Source: Verrucomicrobiia bacterium (lineage in GTDB: Bacteria; Verrucomicrobiota; Verrucomicrobiia; Palsa-1439). From it: a DNA stretch of 64,000 nucleotides. The translations under genes and the position numbers were made by a program. Within the stretch, counting starts at the first letter, position 1; the number at the start of each line of letters is the position of its first letter. Below, in pieces: positions 43,414 to 61,562 of the stretch. The notes beneath the pieces are model-generated. The model had not been told where the DNA came from, did not search any database, and saw only the letters and a program-made list of their open reading frames with translations. The stretch is taken from contig JAJVHY010000004.1 of NCBI GenBank assembly GCA_022072455.1, positions 248,001 to 312,000 of the forward strand. The letters run 5' to 3'.

Positions 43414-43490
<77 letters not shown>

Positions 43491-43553: not shown

Positions 43554-43582
43554 TTGACTTTGCCAGCGGGCACGGCTAACGT
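43554..43582 (+). promoter_or_regulatory. Possible promoter ahead of the tRNA-Ser fragment
   Basis: TTGACT (43554-43559) is followed after 17 bases by TAACGT (43577-43582), with the tRNA-Ser fragment beginning 16 bases further. The -10 match is weak. It supports the idea that the fragment was once a real, expressed tRNA gene. Confidence 0.25.
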
Positions 43583-43597
43583 CACCGCTGCTGCGTC

Positions 43598-43642
43598 GGA
43601 GGGGTGCCAGAGCGGTTGAACGGGCTGGTCTCGAAAACCGGA
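43598..43642 (+). pseudogene. tRNA-Ser (CGA) 5' fragment
   Basis: The first about 45 bases match a bacterial tRNA-Ser: acceptor 5' strand GGAGGGG, a Ser-type D arm (TGCCAGAGCGGTTGAACGG) and a complete anticodon stem-loop with CTCGAAA, anticodon CGA. Homology ends right after the anticodon stem. The variable arm, T arm and 3' acceptor strand are missing, and I found no matching 3' half in the window. A tRNA cut at this point is what an integrated or excised element, or a deletion, would leave. Confidence 0.7.
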
Positions 43643-43647
43643 AACGG

Positions 43648-43786
43648 CACTTTTTGACATTCTCGAATTTTCCTCAATGAAGTGAGAATTTCCACGCCGG
43701 CTTATGTGAAGTCCACTTTTTAACATTTGCGATGCTTTGCGGAGATTTGCGCCAACTTGAGGTTGAATTGCCAATTTTTGCCAATT
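43648..43786. repeat. Short direct and inverted repeats next to the truncated tRNA-Ser
   Basis: CACTTTTTGACATT (43648-43661) recurs with one mismatch at 43714-43727. TTGCCAATT occurs twice with a 10-base period (43768-43776, 43778-43786). An ATTCTC / GAGAAT inverted repeat (43659-43664, 43684-43689) lies between. The 7 bases TCTCGAA of the tRNA anticodon loop also recur at about 43661-43667. The cluster resembles recombinase arm sites, but no recombinase gene is in the window. Confidence 0.4.
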
Positions 43787-43919
43787 GAGATCCAAAGATC
43801 TTGTGGTTGGTTTTGACTGTTCGTCGAGGCGGTACATGATGGTGACTACACTAAGACACCACTTGTCCGATGTGCCGCATTCAAGCCCGGACCATTGCGT
43901 CCGTATGAGTTGTGAGTTC

Positions 43920-44453
43920 TCATGGGGGTGGGGTCGCCGGTGAGGTCGCTTGGGCCTGTTCTCGAGCCAACATCAGTGCGGCAATGTCGGCGGGAGTGAA
44001 GCGGCCGCGCTCGGCCGGAGTGCGTAGGCGTCTCTTCTTCCGTGCATGGCGTTTCGAGACCCTGGGTTGAGGCGCGACCTCGGTGGGGATGGGTAAGGCG
44101 TACCGGCCATGGTGCCAGTGTGGATTCGTTGGACCACGCGCGTGGATGCCGGCGCAATAGCGACTACAACACTTCTGTAAGGTTCCTCGACCCGTTGCGC
44201 GTGGGGTGAACTCAACACGGCACACCGGGCAGGCTGCCCGTCGCGAACGCGCTTTCAGGTATTGGCGCCAGCACGCCACGCTGCAGTATTTCTGTTTCTC
44301 GTGGTTCGTGTAAAACCACCTTCTGCATACCGAGCATTGGTGGTCCTGTGAACGGACCGGGATTTTGGTCTTTTGGCCTGGTTTTAGAAGGAAATCGAAC
44401 CGGTTATTCCCCGCGATATGCCGCTTGCGTTCTGGCCGGGTGAATGTGACCAC
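43920..44453 (-). CDS. Cysteine-rich zinc-finger protein
   Basis: A 177-residue basic protein starting at GTG. It has several zinc-ribbon knuckles: CSVCRRWF...KYCSVACWR, CPVCRVEF and CCSRYCAG, followed by a His-rich HWHHG segment and a basic Pro-rich tail. Such two- or three-knuckle proteins are frequent in phage and mobile-element DNA, but I cannot name the family. Its start lies 9 bases after the stop of a second cysteine-rich gene on the same strand. Base composition is lower in GC than the flanking glycosidase genes, and it sits beside the broken tRNA-Ser, so an acquired origin is possible. Confidence 0.5.
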   Translation of the reverse strand: MVTFTRPERKRHIAGNNRFDFLLKPGQKTKIPVRSQDHQCSVCRRWFYTNHEKQKYCSVACWRQYLKARSRRAACPVCRVEFTPRATGRGTLQKCCSRYCAGIHARGPTNPHWHHGRYALPIPTEVAPQPRVSKRHARKKRRLRTPAERGRFTPADIAALMLAREQAQATSPATPPP

Positions 44454-44462
44454 GGCAGTCCC

Positions 44463-44633
44463 TTACCTCTTCTCAATGCATGGTTTAGCACACTCGCGAC
44501 ACCACATCCGGACATTGAGTCGCGAGTCGCAGGTCGCGCAAGCGGCCTCGGTCACATGTGCCCCACAGTGAGCACAGCGCCCAATTCGCTCGTGGAGTTT
44601 GCGTCCAACCAGTGGTTTTCGGGTCATGCTCAT
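44463..44633 (-). CDS. Small cysteine-rich zinc-ribbon protein (56 residues)
   Basis: A 56-codon gene starting at ATG 44633 (a second ATG lies two codons on) after GAGAGAATT. The protein has four cysteine pairs or near-pairs: CAHC, CATC, CREC and a single Cys at CIEK. The regular spacing of about 10-15 residues indicates a double zinc ribbon. It is basic and has no hydrophobic segment. The stop is 9 bases before the GTG of the next cysteine-rich gene, so the two form a small operon. The function is unknown. Confidence 0.5.
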   Translation of the reverse strand: MSMTRKPLVGRKLHERIGRCAHCGAHVTEAACATCDSRLNVRMWCRECAKPCIEKR

Positions 44634-44930
44634 AATTCTCTCGCCATGTGTTCACGGCCCAGCGTTTGGCCGGGCTCTACTACAGAAAAATGGCGGACAC
44701 CGGCTTAGGCGGGCGGTGCTTATCGGGCGGATGGTGGAGGCGCAGAGACAGTAGTTGGTGGGGGCACATCGGGTTGAGTTGGTCGACTCACGACCAGCCG
44801 GCCGTGAGGCAGTCCCCATTTATACTGTTCATGGGACTCGATCCTCAACAGAACAATGGTAATTCGCACCTGACTACCCCGCTGGGATTCCCCGCGGCGG
44901 AGTGCTCGACCCAACAACTGGAGACAACCA
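44634..44930. other. Intergenic region without recognised gene
   Basis: About 300 bases between the divergent cysteine-rich pair and the chimeric methyltransferase frame. Readings in all frames lack family motifs and look like chance. The only clear signal is a GGAG ribosome site near 44918 preceding ATG 44931. Confidence 0.4.
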
Positions 44931-45440
44931 ATGATGACTGCCCAACAACGCCGCTTCCTCGGGATCTTGCTCGAAGAACTAAGCGTCCCGCAACGCGCCG
45001 GGGTGACCACAAGGGAAGCGGTCGCCGCGCTCCTCGCCGTGGAAGAACGCCTGACGAAGGTGGGAGTGCGATCCCGCGTCAATCTCGTCAAAGGGAACTT
45101 CTATACTGACCCATTGCCAAAGGGATGCGATCTGGCTTGGGTGAGCGCCATCGTTCACCAGAATTCCCGCCAGCAGAATCGGCAGTTGTTCCGGAAGATC
45201 TATCGAGCGTTGGATGCCGGCGGGCGTATTGCGATTCGGGATATTCTGATGGAAGAGTCGCGCACGGCCCCAATCTCGGGCGCGCTGTTCGCCGTCAACA
45301 TGCTGGTGGGAACGGAGGGTGGCGGCACGTTTACCTTCGCCGAACTGCGCGACGACCTGAAAGCGGCGGGTTTCGTTGGGGCCAAGGTGGTGCGGCAGGA
45401 TGCGGGGATGAATGCAGTGGTTGTGGCGACAAAAAGATAA
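44931..45440 (+). pseudogene. Chimeric frame: unknown N-terminus fused to methyltransferase C-terminus
   Basis: A 169-codon frame with its own ribosome site and ATGATG start. Residues 1 to about 49 form a helical segment (RRFLGILLEELSVPQRAG...) unlike any methyltransferase. From about residue 50 (near 45078) it reads as the C-terminal 115 residues of a SAM-dependent small-molecule methyltransferase (NFYTDPLPKGCDLAWVSAI, IHQNSR-like VHQNSR, IAIRDILM, TEGGGTFTFAELRDDL). The SAM-binding glycine motif is absent, so the enzyme should be inactive. The fusion is in frame and might still be translated, but a deletion remnant is the simplest view. Confidence 0.6.
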
Positions 45441-45441
45441 T

Positions 45442-46038
45442 CTACCGATTCTCCATCCGGAGCATGACCTCATTCCGGCGCAGAAACGGCAAAGTCCACG
45501 GCGGATCGAAATAGCCGTAGATCGGCGATGACACAACTTTCAGCCCTTGGGCTGTTGTCCAGGCGCTCAATCGTTCCAGCGACTCGGACTCGTTCTGCGC
45601 ATTGCGCCAACCGCTGAATCGCAGCACGGCGAACCGCCCCGGTTCCTGTTCCCGCACCGTCAATGCGCCATCCGCAGGCTTGGGAACTTGGGACGCCGTC
45701 ATTGAGGCGGGCATGACGAACGCCATGGTTTGGTTCGAGTCGCAGGCAGACATGAAAACCGGCGTAGTCATGGCGATCTTCTGCTTGGCTTCATTCTGGC
45801 CGGTGATGAACCGGAACAATCGCATGAAGCCGTTGTCTGCGCTGTTCCCGCCGCGCATCATGGGGGTTTCCACCACCGTCAATGTTGGGTAATCCCGCAA
45901 CTCGAACTTGCCATCCGTCCGGACGACCGTGTAGGGCGCAGACTCGTAACCGGCCCGCGACGTCCGATAGCTCAGAATAGCCAAGCCAATGACTGCCGCA
46001 AGACAGACCAACAGAATCATCATCATTTTCCGTTTCAA
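45442..46038 (-). CDS. SOUL heme-binding family protein
   Basis: A 198-residue protein with a single N-terminal membrane helix or signal (MMMILLVCLAAVIGLAIL), and then a SOUL/HBP domain recognised by YTVVRTDGKFELRDYP, FMRLFRFITGQN, IAMTTPVFM and the C-terminal YGYFDPPWTLPFLRRNEV. SOUL proteins bind heme or other tetrapyrroles. A TTG start at 46038 is favoured because AGGGA lies 6 bases upstream, overlapping the aldo/keto reductase stop; an ATG four codons later would also do. The pair is transcribed as one unit. Confidence 0.88.
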   Translation of the reverse strand: MKRKMMMILLVCLAAVIGLAILSYRTSRAGYESAPYTVVRTDGKFELRDYPTLTVVETPMMRGGNSADNGFMRLFRFITGQNEAKQKIAMTTPVFMSACDSNQTMAFVMPASMTASQVPKPADGALTVREQEPGRFAVLRFSGWRNAQNESESLERLSAWTTAQGLKVVSSPIYGYFDPPWTLPFLRRNEVMLRMENR

Positions 46039-46045
46039 AATGTCC

Positions 46046-47032
46046 CTAGCGATTGACTGCCTTCATCGATTCCGCCGGATACCGATCCCCGGCCGTCATG
46101 CCGACAGGCAACTTCTCGTCGATCTCCTTCAACTCCGATTTCGTCAACTTGACTTCGACGGCTTCGATATTCTCTTCCAAGTATTTTCGCCGCTTGGTGC
46201 CCGGTATCGGCACGATGTCACCGCCTTGCGCCAGCAGCCATGCCAGCGCCAGTTGCGCAGGTGAGCATTTCTTGCGTTTCGCCAACGCTTCCAACCGCCG
46301 GACGATCTCCAGATTTTTGCGCAGGTTCTCGCCTTGGAAGCGAGGAGTGTTCGATCGCCAGTCCCCCTGCTGTAAATCTTCCGCAACCTTGATTTTCCCG
46401 CTCAGGAACCCGCGCCCCAACGGACTGTAGGGGACGAACGCAATGCCCAACTTGCGGCAAGTCGGCAGGATTTCCGCCTCCACATCCCGCGTCCATAGCG
46501 AATACTCGGTTTGCAGCGCCGCGATCGGATGAACCTTCACAGCCCGATGAATGGTTGCAGGAGCGGCCTCGGACATTCCCAGCCACCGAACCTTACCGGC
46601 TTGCACCAACTCGCTCATCGCGCCAATGGTGTCCTCGATCGGCACCTGCGGATCAACCCGATGCTGGTAATACAGGTCGATGATGTCGACGCCCAGCCGC
46701 TGGAGGCTGCCATCGCAGGCGGACTTCACATATTTGGGGTGCCCGCTGACGCCGATAAACTTGCCCTGTTCGTCCCGTACATTGCCGAACTTGGTCGCGA
46801 GGAACACCTCCGCCCGCCGGTCTTTGATGGCTTGGCCGACGAGCCGTTCGTTCTTGCCGCAGCCGTACATGTCGGCGGTATCGAGAAAGTTGAGGCCGAG
46901 ATCGAGAGCCCGGTGGATGGTCGCGATGGATTCAACGTCATCTTGAGTGCCGTAGAACTCGGACATGCCCATGCAACCGAGACCGAGGGCGGAGACTTGT
47001 GGGCCGTTCTTACCAAGCGTTCGTGTTTTCAT
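46046..47032 (-). CDS. Aldo/keto reductase
   Basis: A 328-residue NADPH-dependent TIM-barrel oxidoreductase. The catalytic tetrad is visible: Asp and Tyr in [13 protein letters not shown], Lys in LATKFGN, and His in YYQHRVDP. The C-terminal NADPH loop contains [13 protein letters not shown]. It is of the YajO/AKR13 type common in bacteria, reducing aldehydes and ketones or detoxifying carbonyls. A GGAGG ribosome site lies 10 bases before the ATG. Followed by the SOUL gene after 7 bases. Confidence 0.92.
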
Positions 47033-47108
47033 TTCTTAAATTTCCTCCAAACAGTTTACCACTAACTTGGTGATGATTGCAGACTCTTCAAGTGCTAGGC
47101 ATGAGGTC

Positions 47109-47276
47109 ATGCCCCGCGCCATTCTCCATGTGGACATGGATGCGTTCTACGCATCGGTCGAGATGCGGGATAACCCTGACCTGCTGGGCAAACCAGTCAT
47201 CGTTGGAGCAGGCCCGCACGAACGGAGAGTGGTTTCCGTATGTTATGTACCATCCCGTGATAGACTCTGGACTTGA
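47109..47276 (+). pseudogene. DNA polymerase IV (DinB) N-terminal fragment
   Basis: The first 43 codons match the start of Y-family polymerases: [16 protein letters not shown], with the metal-binding Asp residues, then [11 protein letters not shown] and a short stretch to about 47240. The rest of the palm, thumb and little finger is missing; the frame runs into unrelated sequence and stops at TGA 47276. A full protein would have about 350 residues. A secreted hypothetical protein gene begins 50 bases later. It is a non-functional remnant. Confidence 0.7.
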
Positions 47277-47325
47277 CGATCAGATCTTGCGGAGTCTAAT
47301 GGGCCATATCTGCTTTGGAGTTGTC

Positions 47326-47976
47326 ATGATTCGTTTCGCAATTTCTAGCGCTCTTTCCTCCGCCATGGCAATCGCCTGCGCGTGGGGAGAACCACCGCCC
47401 AAGCTTCCGACCTTGCCAGACAACGTCCTGCTGTTCAGGCGGCTGCACGTCAACGATTCCTTGATGAGGGCGGAAGCCTTTTCGATGCTAATTCCTACTG
47501 ACTGGAAGGTTGAGGGTGGGATCGTCTGGCGACCTAATCCATCCAAACCAGCAACTGCTGTCATGCGCCTGTCCAGCCCCGATGGACGCCGTCAGTTAGA
47601 GATTCTCCCACAACTACCTTTCGTTGATGGGGCACGCGAAGCCGCCGTGGCATCAGCACGAATGGCCGGGCCCAATGCAACAGCCCTCATGGCGGCACGT
47701 TTTGCCGAAGGGAACTTGAGCTTTGGCAACGAAGTGCGGCGACGAGTCGATACGCCGGCGGCTTTCGTACGACAGGTCGTTCTGCCACGTTTCCGCGCCG
47801 ACCTGCAAGGTGTACACATTGTAAAGGAAGAGGATTTACCAAAGGTCGCCGAAGCCACCGCCGCCGCGCAACAGCAAGCCCCGCCCGACTATTGGGCTTT
47901 CGACGGCGTACATCCGACCGCCGCCGGCTTCGCATTGATGGCGCGGACGTGGCTGGATGCAGTGAGTGGCCGGTGA
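47326..47976 (+). CDS. Exported hypothetical protein with SGNH-hydrolase C-terminal tail (chimera)
   Basis: A 216-residue protein. An ATG at 47326 with GGAG upstream gives a signal peptide (FAISSALSSAMAIACA). Residues about 30-185 are an unrecognised periplasmic domain (LIPTDWKVEGGIVW, DTPAAFVRQVVLPRFR). The last 28 residues (FDGVHPTAAGFALMARTWL) are the Asp-x-x-His C-terminal block of a SGNH/GDSL esterase, but the rest of the esterase, including its Ser, is missing. The product is therefore a natural in-frame chimera or deletion scar. It may still be exported; esterase activity is not expected. Confidence 0.55.
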   Translation: MIRFAISSALSSAMAIACAWGEPPPKLPTLPDNVLLFRRLHVNDSLMRAEAFSMLIPTDWKVEGGIVWRPNPSKPATAVMRLSSPDGRRQLEILPQLPFVDGAREAAVASARMAGPNATALMAARFAEGNLSFGNEVRRRVDTPAAFVRQVVLPRFRADLQGVHIVKEEDLPKVAEATAAAQQQAPPDYWAFDGVHPTAAGFALMARTWLDAVSGR

Positions 47977-48191
47977 TATCGAAACCGGTTAAACGGTTCG
48001 TCCGGTACATCCCGCCGAAGAACCCATCCCAAAACCACCGGCGGGTGGCGGAGGAATTCCTCGTGGGAGAGGTTCTGAGCTTGCGTTAACAACATAATCA
48101 CGAAAGCCCAGTAAACGGTCTGCCATATTCATTTAATAGGTTGTCCCGATAAGGGGCCATGTTATTCTCATTTCTGGTGGGAGACGCGACG
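47977..48191. other. Intergenic region without recognised gene
   Basis: A 215-base space before the fusion gene. It contains no motif-bearing frame. The right end has a GGGAG ribosome site (48179-48183) that serves the next start. Confidence 0.4.
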
Positions 48192-51100
48192 ATGGAACAA
48201 CAGGAACTCAATGCGATGAACGGGCGATCGGAACCCGCGTTCGCTTGGCGCGAACAAGTCCAGCGGCGCGTGCGCGGCCTGCTCGCCGAACACGGGTTGA
48301 CCGCTCGCCAGTGGACTCTTGAGGAATGGCGGCAAGCCAAGAACGTCCGTCGCCAATTGCTGCGGCAAGCCATGACGGAGGCCTCGTCCGCCTTTATGCG
48401 ACCCGGCTCCCTCCCCGCAGCTCCGAGGATTCTCCGTGAGACTTCGTTCGACGGATTCCGCGTTCAGAACATTGTCATCGAATCGCTCCCCGGCCGACTG
48501 GTCGGCCTCAATCTGTTTCTTCCGGCCGACAAGGAGCCGTTTGTGCCGGTGTTGTGTCCCTGCGGGCACGGCCCGAAGTGGCAGGACGATCACCAGATTG
48601 CGCCGCAGGTGCTGGCGCAGAACGGCTTCGCCGCGGCGCTTTTCGACGCACCGATGTTCGGCGAGCAAAGTCGGAACAACGATCATTTTCTCCAAGGTGC
48701 CCAGATGCAGATGGTGGGACAGTGGAGCGGGTTCTTTTTCCTGACCGACCCTGTTTGCGTCGCCAACTACCTCGCCACACGAGAAGACGTCACGCTCCGG
48801 CACGGGCTCGGCGTCACGGGGGTATCGGGCGGCGGCGTCATTGCCCAGCTTCTCGCGCAAATTGACGACCGGGTCCGAGCGATCGTGCCAGTTTGCGCCG
48901 TTTCCGCCCTAGCCGGTTATATTCTCGACGGATTCTATACCGGGTGTCCGGAGGACTATCTCATCGGCCAACTGCGACTGGGCATGGACTTGGACGATTG
49001 GCTGTGCATGGCCGCGCCGGTGCCGTGCCTGGTGATCGGCGGCATGCGCGATCCGGCCATCACTCCGGAGACAATCGAGACCTCGGTCGAAAAAGCGCGC
49101 CGGTTCTATGAACTGGAAGGCGCCGTCGGGAATCTGGCTTTGTTTTTCGACGACTGTCCCCACAAATATACGGTTCCAATGGCAGTCGAAGCCGCCGGCT
49201 GGTTTCGCCGCCGGCTTCTGAACGATTCGGAGGCCGTCAACCGCCGCGCCGTTGATCTGCTGCCGCGGGAGCAATTGGATTGCGGGACCGGCGCGACCAC
49301 CGAGGGAATGTTCGATTCGATCCGCAGGGAGGTCCGCCGATTGCAGGATGGGCGGCGGAGTGATACGAGCGACTCGGCCCTTCTCGAGGTCCTCGCCATC
49401 GAACTGCCTTCTTCCCCAGGGCACTGCGAGACGGTTCCTCGCGCTACCAAGTGGGGCAAGGAAGGTCTGTCGCGGAAGCGGGTCGCCCTTTCGGGCGACA
49501 TCTCCCTGCCGGTGCTGCAGCTGGAACGGCCCGTGCCGGAGAGTGGAACGATTGTTGGTTTTTCCGACGGCGACAAGTTCCAACTACTGAAGCGGCTGGC
49601 GCAGGTCTCAGGTGTCCGGCGAATCGTGGCCGCCGACCTGCGCGGATTCGGCGAACTGACGCCGGCCCCGTCGGACTACGACACGAACAGTTGGTGTTCC
49701 ATCGACTGCGCGCTATCGGATCTCCTGCTCGCATGCGGAGAAACTGCCATCGGCCAACAGACGCGAGACGCTTGGCGAACGCTCGACGCGGTGGCGCGGG
49801 ACAGTGCGGTCTCCGGCGAGCTGATGGTGATGGGATCGGGGGAAGCCGCCCTGCCGGCGTTGTTCGCGGGCCTTCTGCATCCGCGCGTCACAAGGATCGT
49901 GCTGGACTCGTTCCCTTGCAGTTTTGCGATGCTGGCGACGGCCGAAAGGATTCGCTGGAAGCGGTATCAGTATCTACCCGGCGTGTTGAAGCGGTTCGAT
50001 CTGCCGGAGCTTCTTGCCTCGCGCCGCGAGAAGAAGTTCTTGGTGGTCAATCCCTGTGACGGTCTGAAGCGGCCACTCGATGAGATTGCGGCGCTCGCGC
50101 TTTACGACCGGGACGCCGGCAACACCGCGGTGCATGTCGCTTTCGGGTCGGCTGACCTGGCCGCCGCCATCCGTCAGTGGATCGAGACGCCGGTGCCGGC
50201 AGCCGAGCCGCTCGACCCGACCCCGGCGATTCGCGGGGGCCGCCCGGTGCGCGTCCGCCCCTTCCCGTGCAAACTGCTCGGGGCCGATCTGACCGGTCTC
50301 GGCGAGCTCTACCAAGTGCAGGAATCGCTGGCGACAAAGACGCTGTTCCGCCACTACGGCATCGGGAAACCCGTCATGGCGAAAACGTTTGAGCAAAAAA
50401 TGCGCGACCGGTTTGGCGCGCGGTTTGCGCTCGGTTTGACGTCGGGTTCCGCCGCGCTTTTCTGCGCCATGGCCGGTCTCAACATCGGCCCCGGCGACGA
50501 GGTGATTCTGCCGGCCTTCAGTTGGTACTCCTGCTTCAACGCCATCCTCCGGTTCGGGGCGATGCCCGTGTTCTGCGGCATTGACCGGACGATGAATCTC
50601 GATCCGTCCGACTTCGAGCGCAGGATCACCCCGCGCACCAAGGCGGTCATCGTGGTTCATTACCAGGGCGGTCCGGCCCGCATGGACGAAATCATGGCCA
50701 TCGCGCGCCGGACCGGCGTCAAAGTTGTCGAGGACTGTGCGCAGGCGATCGGCGCCTCCTACCGCGGCCATCTGCTCGGCACTATCGGCGATGTGGCGAC
50801 GTTCAGCTTTCAAGGCAACAAGATCCTCACCGCCGGCGAGGGCGGCCTGATCGCCACCGGCGATGCGCTGGTGTTCGAGCGGGCGGTGCGCTTCCACGAC
50901 CTTGGCCACTTCAGGCCTGTGTTTGCCGGCCAGGTTGGTCAGGACGCAAAAGTACCGCAGTTCGCGGGCGAACAGTTCAGAATGAGCGAACTGACTGCGG
51001 CGGTCATGAACGCGCAACTCGACCGGCTGGACTGGATCGTCAGCCGGTGCCGGCGCCGGTGGCGCATGGTCAAGGAACTGGTGCAGCGTGAAGTTCCGGA

Positions 51101-51461
51101 GATCATGTTCCGTGATTCTCCCTGTGCGGATGGAGACGCCGGCATCACCCTGTTCGTGGACCGGGGAACCGCCGCGGCCGGTAAAGGGTTTCTCGACGCG
51201 CTGGCGGCGGAGGGCATTGCCGTTGGCCCGTCGTCCGGGATGTCCAATCTCCTGCGCGAGGAATACGTTCAGGCGCGACGCACTGTCCACCCGGCGCTGC
51301 CGCCGTTGGCGTCCGCGGGAGAAAAGTACGCCGCTGAGCTCTTGGCCGCGACGGAACAGATGGTGCAGCGCATGACGCCGATCGCAATCGGTCCGCGCTA
51401 TTCCGAGCAGGATGCGCGGGACATCGCCGCGGCAATCGTCAAGCTGGCGCGCGCGCTGTAA
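48192..51461 (+). CDS. Alpha/beta-hydrolase - DegT/DnrJ/EryC1 aminotransferase fusion
   Basis: A 1089-residue protein. ATG 48192 has GGGAG 8 bases upstream; an ATG 33 bases earlier lacks one. Residues about 75-370 form an acetyl-xylan-esterase-like alpha/beta hydrolase with nucleophile elbow G-V-S212-G-G-G, and its Asp and His in RDPAITPE and DCPHKYTVP. A second, degenerate hydrolase-like region follows (about 430-680), in which GSGEAALP replaces the nucleophile elbow. Residues about 710-1089 are a complete PLP aminotransferase of the DegT family with Lys877 in FSFQGNKILTAGEGG and HYQGGPARMDEI. I know of no described fusion of these. It could esterify or deacylate and then transaminate one sugar substrate; that is inferred. 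Confidence 0.75.
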   Translation: MEQQELNAMNGRSEPAFAWREQVQRRVRGLLAEHGLTARQWTLEEWRQAKNVRRQLLRQAMTEASSAFMRPGSLPAAPRILRETSFDGFRVQNIVIESLPGRLVGLNLFLPADKEPFVPVLCPCGHGPKWQDDHQIAPQVLAQNGFAAALFDAPMFGEQSRNNDHFLQGAQMQMVGQWSGFFFLTDPVCVANYLATREDVTLRHGLGVTGVSGGGVIAQLLAQIDDRVRAIVPVCAVSALAGYILDGFYTGCPEDYLIGQLRLGMDLDDWLCMAAPVPCLVIGGMRDPAITPETIETSVEKARRFYELEGAVGNLALFFDDCPHKYTVPMAVEAAGWFRRRLLNDSEAVNRRAVDLLPREQLDCGTGATTEGMFDSIRREVRRLQDGRRSDTSDSALLEVLAIELPSSPGHCETVPRATKWGKEGLSRKRVALSGDISLPVLQLERPVPESGTIVGFSDGDKFQLLKRLAQVSGVRRIVAADLRGFGELTPAPSDYDTNSWCSIDCALSDLLLACGETAIGQQTRDAWRTLDAVARDSAVSGELMVMGSGEAALPALFAGLLHPRVTRIVLDSFPCSFAMLATAERIRWKRYQYLPGVLKRFDLPELLASRREKKFLVVNPCDGLKRPLDEIAALALYDRDAGNTAVHVAFGSADLAAAIRQWIETPVPAAEPLDPTPAIRGGRPVRVRPFPCKLLGADLTGLGELYQVQESLATKTLFRHYGIGKPVMAKTFEQKMRDRFGARFALGLTSGSAALFCAMAGLNIGPGDEVILPAFSWYSCFNAILRFGAMPVFCGIDRTMNLDPSDFERRITPRTKAVIVVHYQGGPARMDEIMAIARRTGVKVVEDCAQAIGASYRGHLLGTIGDVATFSFQGNKILTAGEGGLIATGDALVFERAVRFHDLGHFRPVFAGQVGQDAKVPQFAGEQFRMSELTAAVMNAQLDRLDWIVSRCRRRWRMVKELVQREVPEIMFRDSPCADGDAGITLFVDRGTAAAGKGFLDALAAEGIAVGPSSGMSNLLREEYVQARRTVHPALPPLASAGEKYAAELLAATEQMVQRMTPIAIGPRYSEQDARDIAAAIVKLARAL

Positions 51462-51503
51462 GTATGTGCACCCGGCAAGAATATAAGAATGTGGGAGAAC
51501 AGC

Positions 51504-53669
51504 ATGAAACGAATCTTGGGTATGTGCTTAACCATGGCGGTGCTGACAATGCTGAGCGTGACGAAAGTCGGCGGCGCTGAGTTGAAGGTCGGCACGTTTG
51601 AGGCGGACATCACCCCGCCCCTAGGCACTGTTGCCCCTTACGGCATGGGCCCGGCCTTCAACCGTGTCACCGATCCGCTCTACGCCAAGGGCATCGTAAT
51701 CCTGCCCGCGGGGCAGGAGCCGATTGTGCTCTGCGCGCTGGATTGGGTTTCACTGGCAGGCTCGGGTTACGACGCCTTCCGCGAGGCCCTCGCCAAGGCG
51801 GTGGGCACCAAGGTTCAGCGCGTCAGCGTCCACGTGATCCACGTCCACGGCGCGCCGTGTTGCGATTTCGCGACCGAGGAGTTGGCGGCGGCGCACGGCT
51901 GCGGTGGGTTGCACTTCAACGTCGAGGCGGGCCGGGCCGCGGTCGCGGCAACCGCCGAGGCTGCCCGGCAAACCCTCGCCAAGGCCGTGCCCATCACGCA
52001 TGTCGGCGTCGGCAAGGGCCGGGTCGAGAAGGTCGCCTCCACGCGCCGCCTCATCGGCGACGACGGCAAGATGAAGTACTGGCGCGGCAGCGGGCCCGCG
52101 CGTGACCCGATCATGTTCGACCTTCCCGAGGGGTTGATCGACCCGGACGTGCGCCTCATCGCCTTGTGGAACGGCGACCAACCCGTCGCGGCTCTGACGT
52201 ACTACGCCACGCACCCCATGAGCCACTACGGCGATGGCGAGCTCAGCGCCGACTTCGTGGGCATCGCCCGCAAGATGCGTGACGAGGCGGTCCGCGGCGT
52301 CAGACACATTTACTTCAACGGCGGGGGCGGCAACATCGCCCCGGGCAAGTACAACACCGATGGCTTGGGCAGCCGGCCCGTGCTCGCCCAGCGGCTGGCC
52401 GCAGGCATGGCGGCCGCCTGGGACCAGGCGAAACTCAATCGGCAGCCGCTGAAGGCTGGCGATGTCGCCTGGCGTTTCGCCCCCATCCAGTTGCCCCTCA
52501 AGCCCAACCTGACCGAGGAATCCCTGCTCAAGAAGCTTGACGACTCCAAGATCGATAAGCTCGAGCGCGTCTTTATCGCCGAGGATCTGGTGTTCGTCCG
52601 CCGCAATAGCGGAGCGGCACCCATCGAGCTGTCGCGCCTGACCTTGGGGCCCGCCGAGGTCGTGAATTACCCGGGCGAGCCGGTCATCGAGTATCAGTTG
52701 GCGGCCCAAGCAATGCGGCCAGACCGCTTCGTGTGCTTTGCCGGCTATGCGGAATATGGGCCGGTTTACATCAGCACGGAGCTAGGCCACTTTCAGGGCG
52801 GCTTCGAGGCCGAACGCTGGTGTCGGACCTCCGCTTTGGCGGAGCGGGTCCTGATCACCGCCACACGCAAGCTGCTCGACGCCCCGCCGGTCCCCGAGCC
52901 CTCGGCCCAGATCCCGGCCGGGGCCAGCCCCTACATGCGGGCCGTGCTGGAAGACCGCCCCAGCGCGTACTTCCGACTGGGCGAATCCGATCACGCCGCC
53001 GGTTTGCGCGACAGCTCCCAACCCCCGCGCGCCCCCGGCGCGTACTACGGCAGCCCGAAACTCGGCGAGCCCGGGGCCATCGCGGGCGATGCGGATACGG
53101 CCATCCGTCTCGACGGCCAGAAGACTTGGGGTCTCGCCAGCACGACGCTGGCCAACATAACCATCAAGGCCAGCTTCACCGCCGAAGTGTGGGCAAAGTC
53201 CGCCACGCCAGCATTCAACTCCATGGCGTGGTTCGTCAGCAAGCGCGGGCCCGATGGCCTGATCTTCGGTCCGGACGTGTTCACTGAGGGCGGCAAGACC
53301 ATGCAGCGCCTCTCCGCGTGGGTTTTGGATGACCAAGGTCGAAGCGACGCCGCCATCCGCGGCCCGGCCCTGCCCGATACCTTCGATGTTAAGCGCTGGC
53401 ACCACTACGCCGTGACCTACGACGCCGCCAGCGACACGGCCGTGATCTACCTCGACGGCCAGGAGTACGCAACGCGCCGCAACCTGCTGACAGCCACCGG
53501 CGGGAAGCGCTCCCCGCAGACCCAGATCAATCTGGTGTTCGGTCGCGACGACGCCATGGCCGGCCGCTTCGGCGACGGCTGGCTCGATGAGGTCGCGGTG
53601 TATGCCCACGTCCTCACCTCGGAGCGCATCCAGGCGCACTACCGCGCCGGACGGCGAGAGCAACCGTGA
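51504..53669 (+). CDS. Secreted neutral-ceramidase-like protein with C-terminal LamG domain
   Basis: A 721-residue protein with signal peptide (MKRILGMCLTMAVLTMLSVTKVGG). Residues about 30-430 resemble the neutral/alkaline ceramidase fold, with VGTFEADITPP, the His-x-His-like HVIHVHGAP and the THPMSHYGDGELSADF segment. The nucleophile region of ceramidases, GDVSPN, is replaced by GGNIAPGKYN without Ser, so classical ceramidase activity is doubtful. Residues about 480-715 form a LamG domain (WHHYAVTYDAASDTAVIYLDG). A GGGAGA ribosome site precedes ATG 51504. The stop overlaps the creatininase start (GTGA). Confidence 0.7.
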   Translation: MKRILGMCLTMAVLTMLSVTKVGGAELKVGTFEADITPPLGTVAPYGMGPAFNRVTDPLYAKGIVILPAGQEPIVLCALDWVSLAGSGYDAFREALAKAVGTKVQRVSVHVIHVHGAPCCDFATEELAAAHGCGGLHFNVEAGRAAVAATAEAARQTLAKAVPITHVGVGKGRVEKVASTRRLIGDDGKMKYWRGSGPARDPIMFDLPEGLIDPDVRLIALWNGDQPVAALTYYATHPMSHYGDGELSADFVGIARKMRDEAVRGVRHIYFNGGGGNIAPGKYNTDGLGSRPVLAQRLAAGMAAAWDQAKLNRQPLKAGDVAWRFAPIQLPLKPNLTEESLLKKLDDSKIDKLERVFIAEDLVFVRRNSGAAPIELSRLTLGPAEVVNYPGEPVIEYQLAAQAMRPDRFVCFAGYAEYGPVYISTELGHFQGGFEAERWCRTSALAERVLITATRKLLDAPPVPEPSAQIPAGASPYMRAVLEDRPSAYFRLGESDHAAGLRDSSQPPRAPGAYYGSPKLGEPGAIAGDADTAIRLDGQKTWGLASTTLANITIKASFTAEVWAKSATPAFNSMAWFVSKRGPDGLIFGPDVFTEGGKTMQRLSAWVLDDQGRSDAAIRGPALPDTFDVKRWHHYAVTYDAASDTAVIYLDGQEYATRRNLLTATGGKRSPQTQINLVFGRDDAMAGRFGDGWLDEVAVYAHVLTSERIQAHYRAGRREQP

Positions 53670-54370
53670 ATCAGGCGCTGCGTTTCGAGAACCTCTACGG
53701 CGAGGAACTCGATCGCGCGATTGCCCGACTGCCGCTGGCTTGGGTTCCGCTGGGGATCCTCGAGCGCCACGGTGAGCACCTGCCGTGGGGGCTCGACGGA
53801 ATCAAGGCCCACGGGGTTTGTTTGCACCTAGCGCAACGGCTCGGCGGGGTGGTGTTACCGGCGTGTCATCTGGCCGGCGTCCACGAACCCTGGCTGCCAG
53901 ACCCGGCGGCGGCCCGAAAACTGATGGCGAAGGTCCGCGATTTCTACCTGTCGGAAGCGACCCTGCGGATGCTACTCGAGGACACCGGCCGCGGGTTGGC
54001 ACAGGTCGGCTTCCGCATGATTGTGTTTTATACCGGGCACTACCCGCAATTGCAGATTCACGTCGTCAACGATGTCGCCCAGCGACTCACCGCCGCGGGT
54101 GTGGCGCAGGTCGTCGGCTTCGATGAGCTGACCTTCTTTGGCGATGGCGATCACGCGGGCAAGTGGGAGTCGTCGATCTACCTGGCCTTGGGCGGTGAGT
54201 TTCGCCGGGCCGCGCTGCGCGATGAGCATCGCGACCGCACCGGGTACTGGTACTCCAACAGCCCACCGCACCAAGCCAGCCTCGAATTTGGGCAACAGGC
54301 CCTCGCCCGCATCTCCGCCCACTTTGAACAACTGGTAACGGAGCACAGAAAATTGCTATTGCGGGGCTAG
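53666..54370 (+). CDS. Creatininase family amidohydrolase
   Basis: A 234-residue metal-dependent amidase. Metal ligands of the family are present: Glu33, His35 and Asp44 in ILERHGEHLPWGLDG, and a later His and Glu in DGDHAGKWESS. The GTG start lies in a GTGA overlap with the ceramidase-like gene. Creatininase-family members hydrolyse cyclic or formyl amides (creatinine, 2-amino-5-formylamino compounds, mycofactocin precursor). The substrate here is unknown. Its 3' end overlaps a converging gene by 4 bases. Adjacent amide- and amine-handling genes hint at breakdown of an N-acyl or amino compound. Confidence 0.82.
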   Translation: MNQALRFENLYGEELDRAIARLPLAWVPLGILERHGEHLPWGLDGIKAHGVCLHLAQRLGGVVLPACHLAGVHEPWLPDPAAARKLMAKVRDFYLSEATLRMLLEDTGRGLAQVGFRMIVFYTGHYPQLQIHVVNDVAQRLTAAGVAQVVGFDELTFFGDGDHAGKWESSIYLALGGEFRRAALRDEHRDRTGYWYSNSPPHQASLEFGQQALARISAHFEQLVTEHRKLLLRG

Positions 54371-56028
54371 CCCTCCACTTGCCGGCGAATCCGCGCCACC
54401 GACGCGCCCATACCGGGCTGTTCAATCATTCCCTTGTCCCGCACATACCGGCAATACGTGTCCCGGTACAGCGTCGGACAATCATTCCGCGTCGCCGCCA
54501 GTTGCCGGTACTCCGCCCAAGCCGCATCGTATCGCCGCAGCGCCGCCCGGATTCGCGCACTCGCGTCCTCCAAAAACATCACCGTCCAACCGGCGGCGAT
54601 GATCTCGTACAAAATCCGGCCATACGCGCACGACGTGTGAATGAACGACCGCGTCGCTTCAGCGCCCGTGGCAATCTCCCCGGCCACCGTTTCCATCTCC
54701 CGCCATAACCGGACCGCCTCCTCGCGTTCGGCCAGAATCTCCTCCACCCGCCCGGCCTTTTTCACCGTCGCCACGGCCTTCGCCATTGAACTGGCCGGGT
54801 CTTCGACGCCGCCGAGAAATTCGTCGCGCGTCCACCATGTATCGACGCCGCCCTTGACGCTGGCGAGGCCGCGCACCACCGCCGCCGCGGATTTCCGGCA
54901 AATCGTTTCGATGCGCTGCTGATCCCGGTCGTTGAACCCGTTCTCCGCTGCAAACGCGCGAATCAACTCGCTGTCTTGCCGGGAGGGATCCTGCGCCCAT
55001 TTCGCCAACACGTACGCGTTGAGCGCGCACCAAAATTCATTTCGGATGTACGGCCCGCGCCAGCCGCCGCCCCGCGCCCACGTCCAGAGCCCGGCCAAGC
55101 TCGATGTTCCGACCAACTCCCGCAACGACCGCGGGACGCCGGCCGGCATCAGGTTGGCGTCTTCCTCAAATCCATCAATCACGCCCCCGGCAATGTAGTT
55201 CGGGTACGCGCCTTTGCCTTCGTACTCGCGGGCACACTGGATTTCCACGAGTTGTGGGTGCCGGCCGCGACCCAGGGGCGGGCTGAACTTGTGGGTCCGG
55301 TGAAAATCGTTGACGCAATGTTTGAGGCTGAACCACAAGTTCGGATGCGGCTCGACCTGGTTGGAAACCGCCTCGTACATGTCGGCATCCACGTCAATCC
55401 CGCTCAACCATCCCCGGTACATCAGCCGCCGCCCGTGTTTCACGCAGATGGTTTCGCGCATGAGGTTGATCATCGCGACGTGGCTGGCGACTCCGTTGAC
55501 AATGGGATCGCCGCCGGTGTGATACGGCAAATCGTGCAGATACGTTTCGCCGACGCGCGCGACGATGCCGTCCAATTCCGGGAACCGCTCGAAGATGGCG
55601 TCAATCAAGTGGCGAACGAGGTTCTGGACGCGCGGGTCGTGAATGCTGGGGGCGAACTCGCCTTTCACGTCGTGCTCGAACGATTTCGCTTTGTGCTGGG
55701 CCAGGTCGGCGAGATGCAACCGCACGAGTTCGCGGGGCAACACGATAAAATCGCTTTTGGCCAGACACAGCAGTCCGGCCGCCTTGACGCGGCGGAACTG
55801 CGTTTCCAATTCCATCGCTTTCGCCTCGACCCACCGGCGCGCCGCCGAGCCGGCCGGGAAGATGCGCGGATCAAACTGGTCCCACGTCACCGCCCCTTGC
55901 ACTGGTACCACCAGAATTTGGCCGGTGTACCCGAGGCGCGCGAGATGAGCGGGTTCGGTGAACGCTGATGTGCAGGGCGCTTCCCCGGGCGTGTGGTGGA
56001 CCATGTCGTAGACGGCAAGTGATTTCAT
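54367..56028 (-). CDS. TIM-barrel glycoside-hydrolase-like protein (alpha-glucuronidase-like class)
   Basis: A 553-residue cytoplasmic protein, same broad class as the gene at 16453. Candidate catalytic acids occur in IVARVGETYLHDLPYHTGGDP and VEIQCAREYEGKG. The C-terminal half is helical with conserved Trp/Arg pairs, such as GLWTWARGGGWRGP. The start overlaps the URO-D-like gene stop by 4 bases, so it is the last gene of the minus-strand operon. Its own stop overlaps the creatininase stop. An alpha-glucuronidase activity is a guess from fold and context. Confidence 0.5.
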   Translation of the reverse strand: MKSLAVYDMVHHTPGEAPCTSAFTEPAHLARLGYTGQILVVPVQGAVTWDQFDPRIFPAGSAARRWVEAKAMELETQFRRVKAAGLLCLAKSDFIVLPRELVRLHLADLAQHKAKSFEHDVKGEFAPSIHDPRVQNLVRHLIDAIFERFPELDGIVARVGETYLHDLPYHTGGDPIVNGVASHVAMINLMRETICVKHGRRLMYRGWLSGIDVDADMYEAVSNQVEPHPNLWFSLKHCVNDFHRTHKFSPPLGRGRHPQLVEIQCAREYEGKGAYPNYIAGGVIDGFEEDANLMPAGVPRSLRELVGTSSLAGLWTWARGGGWRGPYIRNEFWCALNAYVLAKWAQDPSRQDSELIRAFAAENGFNDRDQQRIETICRKSAAAVVRGLASVKGGVDTWWTRDEFLGGVEDPASSMAKAVATVKKAGRVEEILAEREEAVRLWREMETVAGEIATGAEATRSFIHTSCAYGRILYEIIAAGWTVMFLEDASARIRAALRRYDAAWAEYRQLAATRNDCPTLYRDTYCRYVRDKGMIEQPGMGASVARIRRQVEG

Positions 56029-57302
56029 GTGGGGCAGACTGATTGGGAGGGTTCGGCCGCATCGCTAAATTCCGCGACTGCCTCGTACATCGCGATGATG
56101 TTTTCGGGGGGCACATCCGGCAGGATGTTGTGGACGGTGTTGAAAACGAACCCGCCCCCCGCCGCGAAGATCTCCAGCCGTTCCTGAACGTGCTCCTTCA
56201 CTTGCCGGGGCGTGCCCCGGTTGAGCACCGTGCGCGTGTCGCACCCGCCGCCCCAAAAGGTGATGTCGCGGCCAAACTCGCGTTTCAGCGCGGCTGGCTC
56301 CATCCGGTAACAAGTGGTCTGCACCGGATTGATGATCTCCAACCCGGCCTCGATCAAGTCCGGCAAGTATTCATGGATCGAACCACACGAGTGCAGGAAC
56401 GTGTGCATCTGGCTATGCCGGTGAACATAGTCATACAACTGCGCGTGCCGGCGTTTGAAGAACCGCCGGTACGTGTCGCCAGACATGAACGGGCCGGTAT
56501 CCATCCCCAGATCATCGCCGAAGCGGACGATGTCCACCACGTCACCGACCGCCGCGCAGACTTTCGCCAGCGTGGCCAGATGCACCTCCATCAACGCGTC
56601 GAGCAACTGCTCCACCGCCGCCGGTTCCGCCACGAGATCCATGAGGAAATTATCCATCCGCCGGAGAAACGTGCCCCACTCAAACAGATTGCAGCCGCAC
56701 ACGAGCATGAGGGCGCGGTCGCTGGATTGCCGGAGCGCGAGGGCGTTGGCGCGAAGTCGGCTCCAGAAATCCGGCTGGCCGGCCTGGTCCCACGGACTGT
56801 GCGCGAGCGCCGCCCAATGCACGAGCTTCATCGCCGCCGGCAAGGCTTTCCGAATATCAGCGGGATAACCGTCTACCCACGGGAAACAAGTCTGATCGAA
56901 GAAATTCATATCCGGCAACTGGGTCGCGATCTCGGTGCCATCCGGTGCGACCGTATTCCAGCCACCGCCCGGCATCGGTCGCGGATGAAACCACGCCGGA
57001 TATTGCGCCGCGCTGCCGTCAAACAAGGTGACATCGTACCAGTCGCCGGCTTGCGTATTGAAGGTGCGTCCTACGTCCACAACATCAATCTGGAATCGGT
57101 CGAGGATCGCGTCTTCCGGCTGCGCGAGCTGTTGCACCACGTCGTAAACGCGCGTGTGCCCGGCGACGAGACCGAGATGCTTTTTCACTCGTCCGTAGGC
57201 GATGGCAGAGATCCCAGAACTCGGCGTCGCTCCCAGATCGATCGGTACGCGGTCGGGTTGCCGGTGTGCGATGGCCGCCAGAATCCGTTCGCGCGAGTTC
57301 AC
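56025..57302 (-). CDS. URO-D superfamily protein, corrinoid-methyltransferase-like
   Basis: A 425-residue protein of the uroporphyrinogen decarboxylase superfamily. Its FLHSCGSI motif (His304 and Cys306), followed by Cys in WGGGCDTRTVLNRGTP, matches the zinc-binding pattern of the MtaA/MtbA-type corrinoid methyltransferases rather than heme biosynthesis. The GTG start at 57302 is in a GTGA overlap with the fatty acid hydroxylase gene and follows GGAAG. No corrinoid protein or activase gene is in the window. A role in demethylating a methoxylated compound is plausible, but the sequence does not prove it. Confidence 0.7.
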   Translation of the reverse strand: MNSRERILAAIAHRQPDRVPIDLGATPSSGISAIAYGRVKKHLGLVAGHTRVYDVVQQLAQPEDAILDRFQIDVVDVGRTFNTQAGDWYDVTLFDGSAAQYPAWFHPRPMPGGGWNTVAPDGTEIATQLPDMNFFDQTCFPWVDGYPADIRKALPAAMKLVHWAALAHSPWDQAGQPDFWSRLRANALALRQSSDRALMLVCGCNLFEWGTFLRRMDNFLMDLVAEPAAVEQLLDALMEVHLATLAKVCAAVGDVVDIVRFGDDLGMDTGPFMSGDTYRRFFKRRHAQLYDYVHRHSQMHTFLHSCGSIHEYLPDLIEAGLEIINPVQTTCYRMEPAALKREFGRDITFWGGGCDTRTVLNRGTPRQVKEHVQERLEIFAAGGGFVFNTVHNILPDVPPENIIAMYEAVAEFSDAAEPSQSVCPT

Positions 57303-58273
57303 TTCTGTTCTTCCGGTAAATTGGCGCCCGTCCCCGCCGGCAAGCCGTCGCGGAAGGTGCCGAACCACTTGTCGAGCGGGATGCCGGACTCGCCGTAATT
57401 GCACTCGAAATACCGGTGATGGAGGTAATGGAAATACGAGCCGGTCGGCAACTTGCCGTTGAGCAGCGGGCCTTCAAATCCATGGTGTCCCGCCGCCGGC
57501 GTCAGCGCGGTGTGTTGCGCATTGAACAGAAAATGAATCGGATGTGAGGGCACAATCCAATGAATCAGCACCACGCTGAAATACAGGAGGTGCTCGACCG
57601 GATGCATGGCCAAACCCGACCACGGACCGGGGTTCACGTTCTTGTGGTGGAGGTAATGGACGTATCTGTAGAGCGGCTTCCAGTGGATCGCCCGGTGAAT
57701 CCAGTAGAAATGAAACTCGCGCCAAAACGGGATCGCACAGAGCCACACCGCGCAGTAAATGGGATGTTCGCGCCAGCTAACGTACGGCACATGATGATTC
57801 GCCGCCGCCCACATGTACCAGACTTCGTACGCCGTCCAGATCGGCACGCCGCTGGCGCAACTCCAGAAAATGTTGTCCCAGAGTTGATCCTTGAAGGTGA
57901 AATTCCGGTCGTTCGTGCGCAACCAGCGCGCGTCGTATTTTCGGTCTGTACCCTGCGCTTTGAAGGTGTAAAGCAACAGATGCCAGCCGCCCGCCACCAT
58001 CCAAATCAACACCAGATTCCGCAAGACCATTTGGGCGATCCAGTCCCACCGGAATTCCGCGCACCGTTCCAAGTCCGGCTGGAAGTAGAACCAGCACACG
58101 ACGGTGATGAGCAGGTAAACTGAATTCCAAGGCCACAGAAATCCCGGATACGAGAGCAGCCATTTCGCGAGGTCTTTGGCGCGCGGCGGCCAAGCGAATA
58201 CCGGCGCATATTTCACCGGATAATCGGGCCGCCATTCCCCCTTCGCGTTGCGGATTCCGGAATCGGAGCTCAT
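57299..58273 (-). CDS. Fatty acid hydroxylase / sterol desaturase superfamily membrane protein
   Basis: A 324-residue integral membrane protein with helices at about 45-65, 85-105, 150-175 and 225-245. The His boxes of the di-iron FA_hydroxylase family are complete: HRAIH, HYLHH, HPVEHLLYF-type and HYLHHRYFECNYG. The family inserts or removes O2-derived groups on lipid chains, sterols or carotenoids. It overlaps the Gfo/Idh/MocA gene and the URO-D-like gene by 4 bases each. Finding such an enzyme inside a sugar-metabolism operon is unusual; substrate unknown. Confidence 0.85.
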   Translation of the reverse strand: MSSDSGIRNAKGEWRPDYPVKYAPVFAWPPRAKDLAKWLLSYPGFLWPWNSVYLLITVVCWFYFQPDLERCAEFRWDWIAQMVLRNLVLIWMVAGGWHLLLYTFKAQGTDRKYDARWLRTNDRNFTFKDQLWDNIFWSCASGVPIWTAYEVWYMWAAANHHVPYVSWREHPIYCAVWLCAIPFWREFHFYWIHRAIHWKPLYRYVHYLHHKNVNPGPWSGLAMHPVEHLLYFSVVLIHWIVPSHPIHFLFNAQHTALTPAAGHHGFEGPLLNGKLPTGSYFHYLHHRYFECNYGESGIPLDKWFGTFRDGLPAGTGANLPEEQK

Positions 58274-59532: not shown

Positions 59533-59645
59533 ATGCAGTTTTACCAAGCAAATCGCCGGCCGAAGTCCGTGCCGGCGCATACGTGTGAATGATCGAGGAC
59601 GTAGAAGCGCCGGGGGGACATTTCGTCAAACCGGCGCAGGTGATC

Positions 59646-60725
59646 CTACGGCCACGGATAGCCGTAGCGGTATCCGTACGGGGAGTCTTTTCCCCTTCCC
59701 GTAGCGTCTTGATCGACGACCGTGGAGGCAATCTCGCGCCCGCCCCGGGCGAAATCCACACGGAAGCTCTCATTTCCCGGCTGCGTATTGTAGACCGGGT
59801 TAAACACCATCTCGTACTCGATGGGCATCAACCTCCAAACGGCACCAATGCCAAGGACTGAGTTGAAGCTTGTCCACGATCCTGACACCGCCACGCCTCC
59901 GGTCGTTGTGCAACTACTCCGGGGTACCCATCGTCCCGACCCCTCCGTGGCAACGACATTCACGCCATCGCCGATGCCATCCTTGCCGAGATGCGGGGTG
60001 TAGTAGGTAATGGGACGGGTTCCGACCATGGTCGGCCCCCAGTAAGAAATGTCGATGGAGAAGATCCGCAACCCGTAATTGAGTCTGTAACTCCACAATC
60101 CCTTCCGTGCACGCGCCGCAATAGTATTACTTGCATCTAAATGGGTCGCGGTGCCGCTCATGCTGTAGTCGCCCGAGTTTTGCCACGACCAGTTGATCCA
60201 ATTGAAAGGGCCACTCACCCTGCTTCGATTGCTGCTGGGACACCAAAGAATGCCCTTCGGCGCCACGAATCGTCCCGCGCCTAGGAAATTATTGGTCGCC
60301 AACAACCCGGTAGCAGTGTCTATAGTGTCGATTCCCGCGTAGTCCCGGTAGAATCGGAAGGCCGTACTCCAAGTATAGCCCGGCTGTCTGCCGAGATAAA
60401 CATAACCATTGGCTGTCGCCAGTCCGCGTGGAAGCCAGTCGTCGTAGTCACTGGCGTAATTCTGTGCGGCGATGTAAAGCTGTCTCTGATTGCTGAGGCA
60501 GGCCACGCGGCGGGCACGCTCTCTGGCTTGGCCGAGAGCGGGAAGAAGCAGCGCGGCGAGCACCGCGATGATCGCGATCACGACCAGCAGTTCGATGAGG
60601 GTGAACCCCGCCACTTTGCGCTTCGACACGGCCAGCGCGGTTGTGAGCCTTTCGTCCAGCCGACTGACCAGCAACCGGACACTTCCTCTTAGCGGCCGCT
60701 GGGCTTCAGCATTCAATCCGATCAT
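59646..60725 (-). CDS. Prepilin-type cleavage/methylation protein (type II secretion pseudopilin-like), downstream copy
   Basis: A 359-residue protein, if the ATG at 60725 is used, following 7 bases after the first prepilin gene. It carries the class III leader [35 protein letters not shown], with cleavage between Gly and Phe and a long helix. The C-terminal domain is of the DUF1559/prepilin-family type seen in numerous copies in Planctomycetes, Lentisphaerae and Verrucomicrobia. A GTG nearer the FTLIE site could be the true start, because the leader is otherwise unusually long. Probably a secretion or surface filament subunit; its relation to the sugar genes is unknown. Confidence 0.72.
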
Positions 60726-60732
60726 GGCCTCA

Positions 60733-61401: not shown

Positions 61402-61527
61402 GGTGCCACGGCGAAACTGTCGTTGTCGCGCTTTGTTGATCACGATCCTTGCTCGACTCCTGCAGTTGGCTCTGCCACCTTCATTAGTGATCCGTTGCAA
61501 GCTACCATGCGGCGACAGCCTCCTGCC

Positions 61528-61556: not shown

Positions 61557-61562
61557 CTGAGC

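What the first reader, a model, noticed from the sequence alone, without database searches (positions are those of the whole stretch)
43598..43786. tRNA-Ser broken after the anticodon stem, next to recombinase-like repeats
The 5' 45 bases of tRNA-Ser(CGA) are perfect in structure, then sequence changes to a short run with direct and inverted repeats. No 3' half or integrase is present in the window. This is a likely scar of integration or excision, or a tRNA with a far-away second half.
Basis: partly seen in the sequence, partly recalled or inferred. Interest (0 to 1): 0.5.

Follow-up and report, generated by a model that had tools for sequence, protein, structure and literature searches.

The report
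Stranded tRNA half marking island's edge
The broken tRNA is the left edge of mobile DNA that cut into a serine tRNA gene and rebuilt it 115 kb away with its own copy of the first half, so the working tRNA now lies behind the element's DNA instead of its own promoter; such islands are known but rare.

Summary
Window 43598-43639 is an exact 42-bp copy of bases 1-42 of tRNA-Ser(CGA). The intact gene lies outside the window, same strand, 114.7 kb downstream (C1:406280-406370). A 392-aa tyrosine recombinase sits beside it, divergent, 102 bp from its 5' end. So this is an attachment site, not a split tRNA. The element recombined at the anticodon loop and supplied the tRNA's 5' half; the stranded half kept the original upstream DNA.

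Relatives repeat the arrangement. In 17 of 17 pairs compared, the shared stretch starts at tRNA base 1 or 2 and ends 0-6 bases after the anticodon loop. Two relatives have contigs of both the empty and the occupied site. One integrase clade (99/94 support) has 16 rows of this type, 5 unclear, none of the other types.

Islands leaving a 5' tRNA fragment are a known minority (159 of 3919 in Islander). This is a new, clade-wide case in uncultured Verrucomicrobiota. The 115 kb is probably not one simple element: it holds a second left end, in a broken transposase gene at C1:386215, and one strong right end.

The parts
43598..43639 (+). Stranded 5' half of tRNA-Ser(CGA), left attachment site: exact copy of bases 1-42 of the intact gene at C1:406280-406370
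43554..43582 (+). Candidate original promoter of tRNA-Ser(CGA), TTGACT-N17-TAACGT, left behind upstream of the half; a like pattern (TTGACT-N17-TAGCAG) stands upstream of the orphan half in relative G008
   Evidence: read by eye; the consensus scan did not list it
43640..43790 (+). Left end of the element, with direct repeats and two TTGCCAA boxes (43768, 43778) that also occur at the right end (C1:406206, 406216); probably integrase arm-binding sites
43414..43490 (+). Intact tRNA-Arg(TCT) upstream of the junction, outside the element (context)
43640..64000 (.). Part of the 114.7-kb interval between the two tRNA-Ser copies that lies in this window; the interval runs on to C1:406279

Best explanation
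The half tRNA is the left junction (attL) of DNA integrated by a tyrosine recombinase of one Verrucomicrobiota clade. The enzyme recombines attP on a circular element with attB in the anticodon loop of a tRNA gene. AttP carries a copy of tRNA bases 1 to about 42, so integration leaves the chromosome's own 5' half on the left and rebuilds a full tRNA on the right, from the element's 5' half plus the chromosome's 3' half. The working tRNA then lies behind the element's right arm, opposite the integrase gene, and must be transcribed from element DNA or by read-through. Shown: the 42-bp repeat, the intact gene, the integrase, shared arm boxes, recurrence in relatives, contigs of empty and occupied sites in two relatives. 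Inferred: strand-exchange position, attP form, source of tRNA transcription. The 115 kb here probably holds two elements: remains of one whose left end is in the window, and a 20-kb defence-carrying one (C1:386215-406279) whose left end is fused to a transposase gene at a core-like sequence.
For: 42-bp exact direct repeat and intact tRNA on the same strand. Recombinase 102 bp from the tRNA 5' end, divergent, with a Phage_integrase domain. TTGCCAA pairs at both ends. Of 19 tRNAs next to a related integrase or its remnant that were searched, 14 have an orphan 5' half in the same genome, 7 of them on the same contig (checked; Ser-CGA of the own genome). 17 of 17 pairs: shared stretch from base 1 or 2 to 0-6 bases past the anticodon loop. 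Contigs of the empty attB and the occupied attR, identical from tRNA base 1 on, in G009 (Ser-GGA) and G002 (Tyr). Clade 99/94: 16 five-prime type, 5 unclear, 0 of the other types. Right flank of the Thr element matches relatives' DNA beside an intact tRNA-Thr. Targets share a GGT-N7-ACC anticodon stem: 9 of the 12 nearest, against 1 of 30 background tRNAs, with the bias told in the full report.
Against: No genome with an empty tRNA-Ser(CGA) and both flanks of this locus was found among the ten relatives' loci compared. In GC the 94 kb next to the half equals the left flank (0.61), not the 20-kb element (0.57), and in tetranucleotides it is somewhat nearer to that flank; the other six same-contig pairs span 7.7-39 kb; so one 115-kb element is doubtful. 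The end profiles were built with this locus's own ends in them. No promoter was recognised in front of the rebuilt tRNA. Two of the 19 tRNAs gave neither an orphan half nor an empty site. In G009 an identical integrase region is followed by Ser-GGA in one contig and a Ser-GCT half in another, the switch at base 27-28, which a crossover in the anticodon loop does not explain.
Confidence: 0.92

Rival explanations
1. One large 115-kb genomic island, including the 94 kb of sugar-degradation and other metabolic genes as cargo, integrated in a single event.
For: One 42-bp direct repeat bounds the whole interval; a 24-bp stretch with the arm boxes is 92% alike at the far left and far right ends.
Against: A second left end of the same family sits at C1:386215 in a truncated transposase gene; the six other same-contig pairs are 7.7-39 kb; the 94 kb resembles the left flank in GC.
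Confidence: 0.25
2. Two elements: one inserted at the tRNA, a second at a core-like site in a transposase gene within it or nearby; recombination between their right junctions or a deletion then removed the first element's integrase end.
For: Two left ends and one strong right end in 134 kb; two transposase homologues run on past the break, which falls in GAAAACCGG, a stretch also found where the tRNA half meets the left end; the lost C-terminal part was not found in the 134 kb.
Against: No intermediate seen; the order of events is inferred.
Confidence: 0.6
3. A split or trans-spliced tRNA whose 3' half is encoded far away.
For: Only the 5' half is in the window.
Against: A complete tRNA-Ser(CGA) is in the genome; no lone 3' half of it among the five genome matches; the half is followed by an element end with relatives in other genomes.
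Confidence: 0.01
4. A chance or segmental duplication of part of a tRNA gene, without an integrase.
For: A short tRNA piece alone could arise so.
Against: Integrase, arm boxes, orientation, and the same break after the anticodon loop in 17 of 17 pairs.
Confidence: 0.01

Closest known systems
Genomic islands with a 5' tDNA fragment (Islander database, PMC4383910; passages and section 5 read)
   Same: Tyrosine integrase in a tRNA gene, anticodon-centred crossover, 5' fragment upstream of the intact gene, same orientation; 159 of 3919 islands there.
   Different: Here an integrase clade of uncultured Verrucomicrobiota keeps this side over Ser, Thr, Tyr, Leu, Arg and SeC tRNAs; the parts of the paper that I read give only a count for the class.
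Usual 3'-restoring tRNA islands
   Same: Same target genes, same enzyme family; related integrases in this class lie beside tRNAs in that way (28 of 95).
   Different: There the tRNA keeps its original promoter; the archaeal review PMC8371274 (passages read) says so for bacteria 'with very few exceptions', citing Williams 2002, which was not held. Here the upstream DNA is replaced.
tRNA-dependent lysogeny in mycobacteriophages (PMC10865867; abstract and outline read)
   Same: Integration takes over the supply of a tRNA.
   Different: There the host tRNA is not rebuilt and the phage carries a whole tRNA gene; here half a gene is supplied and the tRNA is rebuilt at the junction.
Phage satellites (P4-like, PICI; recalled, with abstract starts)
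   Same: The 7.7-kb element of this genome and a 12.3-kb one carry integrase, excisionase-like gene, primase or primase-polymerase-like genes and terminase genes; defence genes in the 20-kb one.
   Different: Helper and packaging untested; a large terminase subunit is present, and no capsid gene was named among the proteins scanned, which are not all of each element.

Membership tests
tRNA-gene genomic island, 5'-fragment class (Islander criteria) | Fragment is an end of the tRNA gene and matches an intact copy | tested here: met
   bases 1-42, 100%
tRNA-gene genomic island, 5'-fragment class (Islander criteria) | 5' fragment lies upstream of the intact tRNA in the same orientation | tested here: met
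   C1:291598 and C1:406280, both +
tRNA-gene genomic island, 5'-fragment class (Islander criteria) | Tyrosine integrase gene inside the interval | tested here: met
   C1:404999-406177
tRNA-gene genomic island (supporting feature) | Empty site known | tested here: inconclusive
   not for this locus; contigs of it for G009 Ser-GGA and G002 Tyr
Phage satellite | Integrase, replication genes, packaging gene, no structural genes | tested here: inconclusive
   fits the 7.7-kb and 12.3-kb elements as far as scanned; no terminase named in the Pfam, PADLOC or PHROGs scans of 20-kb-element proteins, but PHROGs was run on only two of them besides the integrase
Phage satellite | Mobilised by a helper phage | not testable with these tools
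   needs culture
Split or trans-spliced tRNA | Separate 3' half gene and no intact gene | tested here: not met
   intact gene present

The most novel reading that the evidence does not exclude
These elements hold host tRNAs under their own control. The roughly 45-160 bp between integrase and tRNA would be a shared switch: it holds the presumed arm sites of the integrase, the start of the integrase gene and whatever drives the rebuilt tRNA, so that integrase or excisionase binding would lower the supply of one Ser, Thr, Tyr, Leu, Arg or SeC tRNA until excision gives the gene back its own promoter.
Probability: 0.2. Interest if true: 0.65.

Novelty: new member of a known kind. Interest (0 to 1): 0.42.

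Why it matters
Most tRNA islands leave the tRNA under its own promoter. Here an integrase clade does the opposite over six tRNA families, which allows a test of how an element can safely take over a host tRNA's transcription and why this side is rare. It also gives precise ends for a family of satellite-like, defence-carrying elements in little-studied Verrucomicrobiota, and shows that lone 5' halves of tRNAs can mark element edges.

Tried and rejected
Rejected: split tRNA (intact copy); chance duplication; excision scar (right junction stands). The consensus promoter scan listed neither the presumed original promoter nor one in front of the rebuilt tRNA. A T-run 14-16 bases after base 39 of the half recurs in 10 of 17 left ends, but no steady hairpin precedes it, so I do not call it a terminator. 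Synteny of the flanks of this locus in ten relatives' loci and three further ones: none convincing. Integrase relatives in phage and plasmid records were distant, at most 31% identity; in viral contigs 25-33%. Papers: the searches listed no paper whose title or abstract start names this clade; Williams 2002 was not held, so its account of 5' sites was not read.

Rows dropped before counts: eleven re-fetched copies of loci (L174-L179, L184, L187, L191, L192, L198) before the 95 integrase loci; the 95 are a selection from the matches, whose listing was cut, and include one pair with identical protein (L014, L063). Proteins covering under 250 model positions were left out of the tree (92 rows kept), and under 300, plus ten named rows, out of that (80 rows): eight long branches, among them four of the 3'-fragment type and two of the 3'-end type, and two copies. 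The 3'-fragment class and three added 5'-type rows were set by hand from BLAST ranges. In one search Thr-CGT was taken out of the background because it is a target.

Full report
What is there. Window 43598-43639 (C1:291598-291639 of the genome) equals bases 1-42 of tRNA-Ser(CGA) letter for letter; identity stops at both ends of that stretch. The genome holds an intact tRNA-Ser(CGA) at C1:406280-406370, same strand, 114.7 kb downstream and outside the window. The genome's three other matches to it are two full-length tRNAs of 71 and 78% identity and a 32-base stretch of another tRNA. A 392-aa tyrosine recombinase (Phage_integrase) lies on the minus strand at C1:404999-406177, its start codon 102 bp from the tRNA's first base. 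Paired TTGCCAA boxes lie 10 bp apart at window 43768 and 43778 and again at C1:406206 and 406216.

How it most likely works. The enzyme exchanges strands at the anticodon loop. In the 17 orphan/intact pairs compared, the shared stretch begins at base 1 (base 2 in two pairs) and ends 0-6 bases beyond the loop, never short of it. Four pairs carry 1-3 mismatches, seven match for 1-6 further bases upstream, and two are halves beside an integrase, one of them compared with another genome's gene. Because the element carries the tRNA's 5' half, the chromosome's own 5' half is stranded on the left with its upstream DNA, and a full gene is rebuilt on the right. Upstream of the stranded half a candidate promoter TTGACT-N17-TAACGT stands at 43554-43582; relative G008's orphan has TTGACT-N17-TAGCAG, and the Thr orphan on C19 of this genome TTGACC-N17-TATGAT (read by eye; the scan did not list the first). 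Upstream of the rebuilt genes lies element DNA, in most family members with like arm boxes. That the tRNA is now transcribed from element DNA follows from the anatomy and is not shown.

Relatives. Of 57 genomes (the own one included) 43 have an integrase match at E 0.001. Of 384 genomes of the class (the own one included; four candidates scored in each at most) 97 match the clade profile at 1e-60. I classed 95 integrase loci, a selection of these matches: 22 have an intact tRNA within 300 bp with its 5' end towards the integrase, 28 with its 3' end, 45 neither. By hand three of the 45 joined the first type (two with a 5' half only, one with 24 tRNA bases at a contig end), 19 formed a third type, a 3' part of a tRNA beside the integrase, and 23 stay unclear. 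In the careful tree one clade (99/94) holds 16 rows of the 5' type, two of them by-hand rows, 5 unclear and none of the others; the 5' type needs 8 changes against a shuffled mean of 20.2, 0 of 500 as low. In the fuller quick tree a 21-row clade (support 91) gives the same counts with slightly different members. Outside that clade the 5' type recurs; of those, L020 and L021 have an orphan half, and L188, L189, L190, L196, L217 and L222 were not checked for one.

Orphan halves. Nineteen tRNAs beside such an integrase (16) or a remnant of one (3) were searched; a twentieth, in G004 (L081), was not. Fourteen have an orphan 5' half in their genome: seven on the same contig, at 7.7, 12.3, 13.6, 16.4, 20.2, 39.1 and 114.7 kb, and seven on other contigs. 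Of the other five, two have an empty-site contig, one has a matching half beside a different integrase, and two have nothing. In G009 (tRNA-Ser-GGA) and G002 (tRNA-Tyr) an empty and an occupied contig are identical from tRNA base 1 to the end of the shorter one and differ upstream. The empty contigs end about 30 bases after the tRNA, as at a fork of the assembly, so reads are needed to make this firm. Right-flank synteny with intact loci holds for the C19 Thr and the G020 Ser-TGA elements, whose left flanks gave no match; G020 Arg-TCT has a short left-flank match and no right one; the SeC element has one weak left match and the Leu element none.

Target choice. The anticodon stem ends in GGT and resumes with ACC in 9 of the 12 nearest targets and 7 of 10 other 5'-type ones, against 10 of 28 for the 3'-end type and 1 of 30 in the background (p 4.5e-6 for 9 of 12). 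The background comes from the best-scoring of 87 tRNAs of two genomes, which leaves out most Ser, Leu and Tyr genes, and kinship is not corrected for; this is a lead, not proof.

The 115 kb. Profiles of the ends find two left ends (C1:291634 and C1:386216) and one strong right end in 134 kb; these were in the profiles, so the news is that there is no further strong one, the next having E 0.02. The second left end breaks a transposase gene within GAAAACCGG, a stretch also found where the tRNA half meets the first left end; two homologues run on past that point. From there to the tRNA lie 20 kb with type III restriction-modification, AbiE, macro-domain and primase-like genes. The 94 kb before it has the GC of the left flank (0.613-0.615 against 0.612-0.614; 20-kb element 0.569); its tetranucleotide distance is 0.107-0.144 to that flank, 0.139-0.157 to the 20-kb element and 0.193-0.206 to the right flank. 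Of its genes I scanned eleven, finding ordinary enzymes such as a GH95 glycosidase, a fucosidase and an aldo/keto reductase. I read this as two elements and a rearrangement; whether the 94 kb can move with them is open.

What the elements are. The 7.7-kb element on C19 carries integrase, an excisionase-like gene, a primase, a gene with a weak primase-polymerase match, an ERCC4 nuclease and a large terminase subunit; the 12.3-kb one in G010 has both terminase subunits. They look like phage satellites; helper use is untested, and not every gene was scanned.

Known or new. Islander counts 159 islands with a 5' tRNA fragment among 3919 (section 5 read). The archaeal review says that bacterial tRNAs keep their original promoter with very few exceptions (passage). 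So the kind is known and rare; the clade-wide, many-target habit in Verrucomicrobiota was named in no title or abstract start listed by the eight searches that ran. One observation stays unexplained: in G009 the same integrase region, 3200 bp identical, is followed by tRNA-Ser(GGA) in one contig and by a Ser(GCT) half and a left end in another, the switch lying at base 27-28.

Noticed in passing
L140:13700-14040 (G000:C19, right after tRNA-Thr): About 340 bp between the intact tRNA-Thr(CGT) and a second copy of its 3' end hold a small ORF that looks by eye like a GIY-YIG nuclease; the same tRNA seems to have been hit on both sides.
   Followed up: partly
L150 (G009:C86) and L098 (G008:C132): An integrase followed by a tRNA-Ser(GCT) 5' half and a left end, without a 3' half: attP of a circle or a tandem junction.
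   Followed up: partly
C1:385205-386269 (L009): Transposase gene (DUF772, DDE) cut at a tRNA-core-like sequence by an element's left end.
   Followed up: partly
left ends of 10 of 17 elements, 14-16 bases after base 39 of the half: A recurring run of T at a fixed distance from the tRNA half; meaning unknown.
   Followed up: partly
L034 (G006) and L038 (G007): tRNA-Ser(TGA) and tRNA-Ser(CGA) genes close together and on opposite strands.
   Followed up: no
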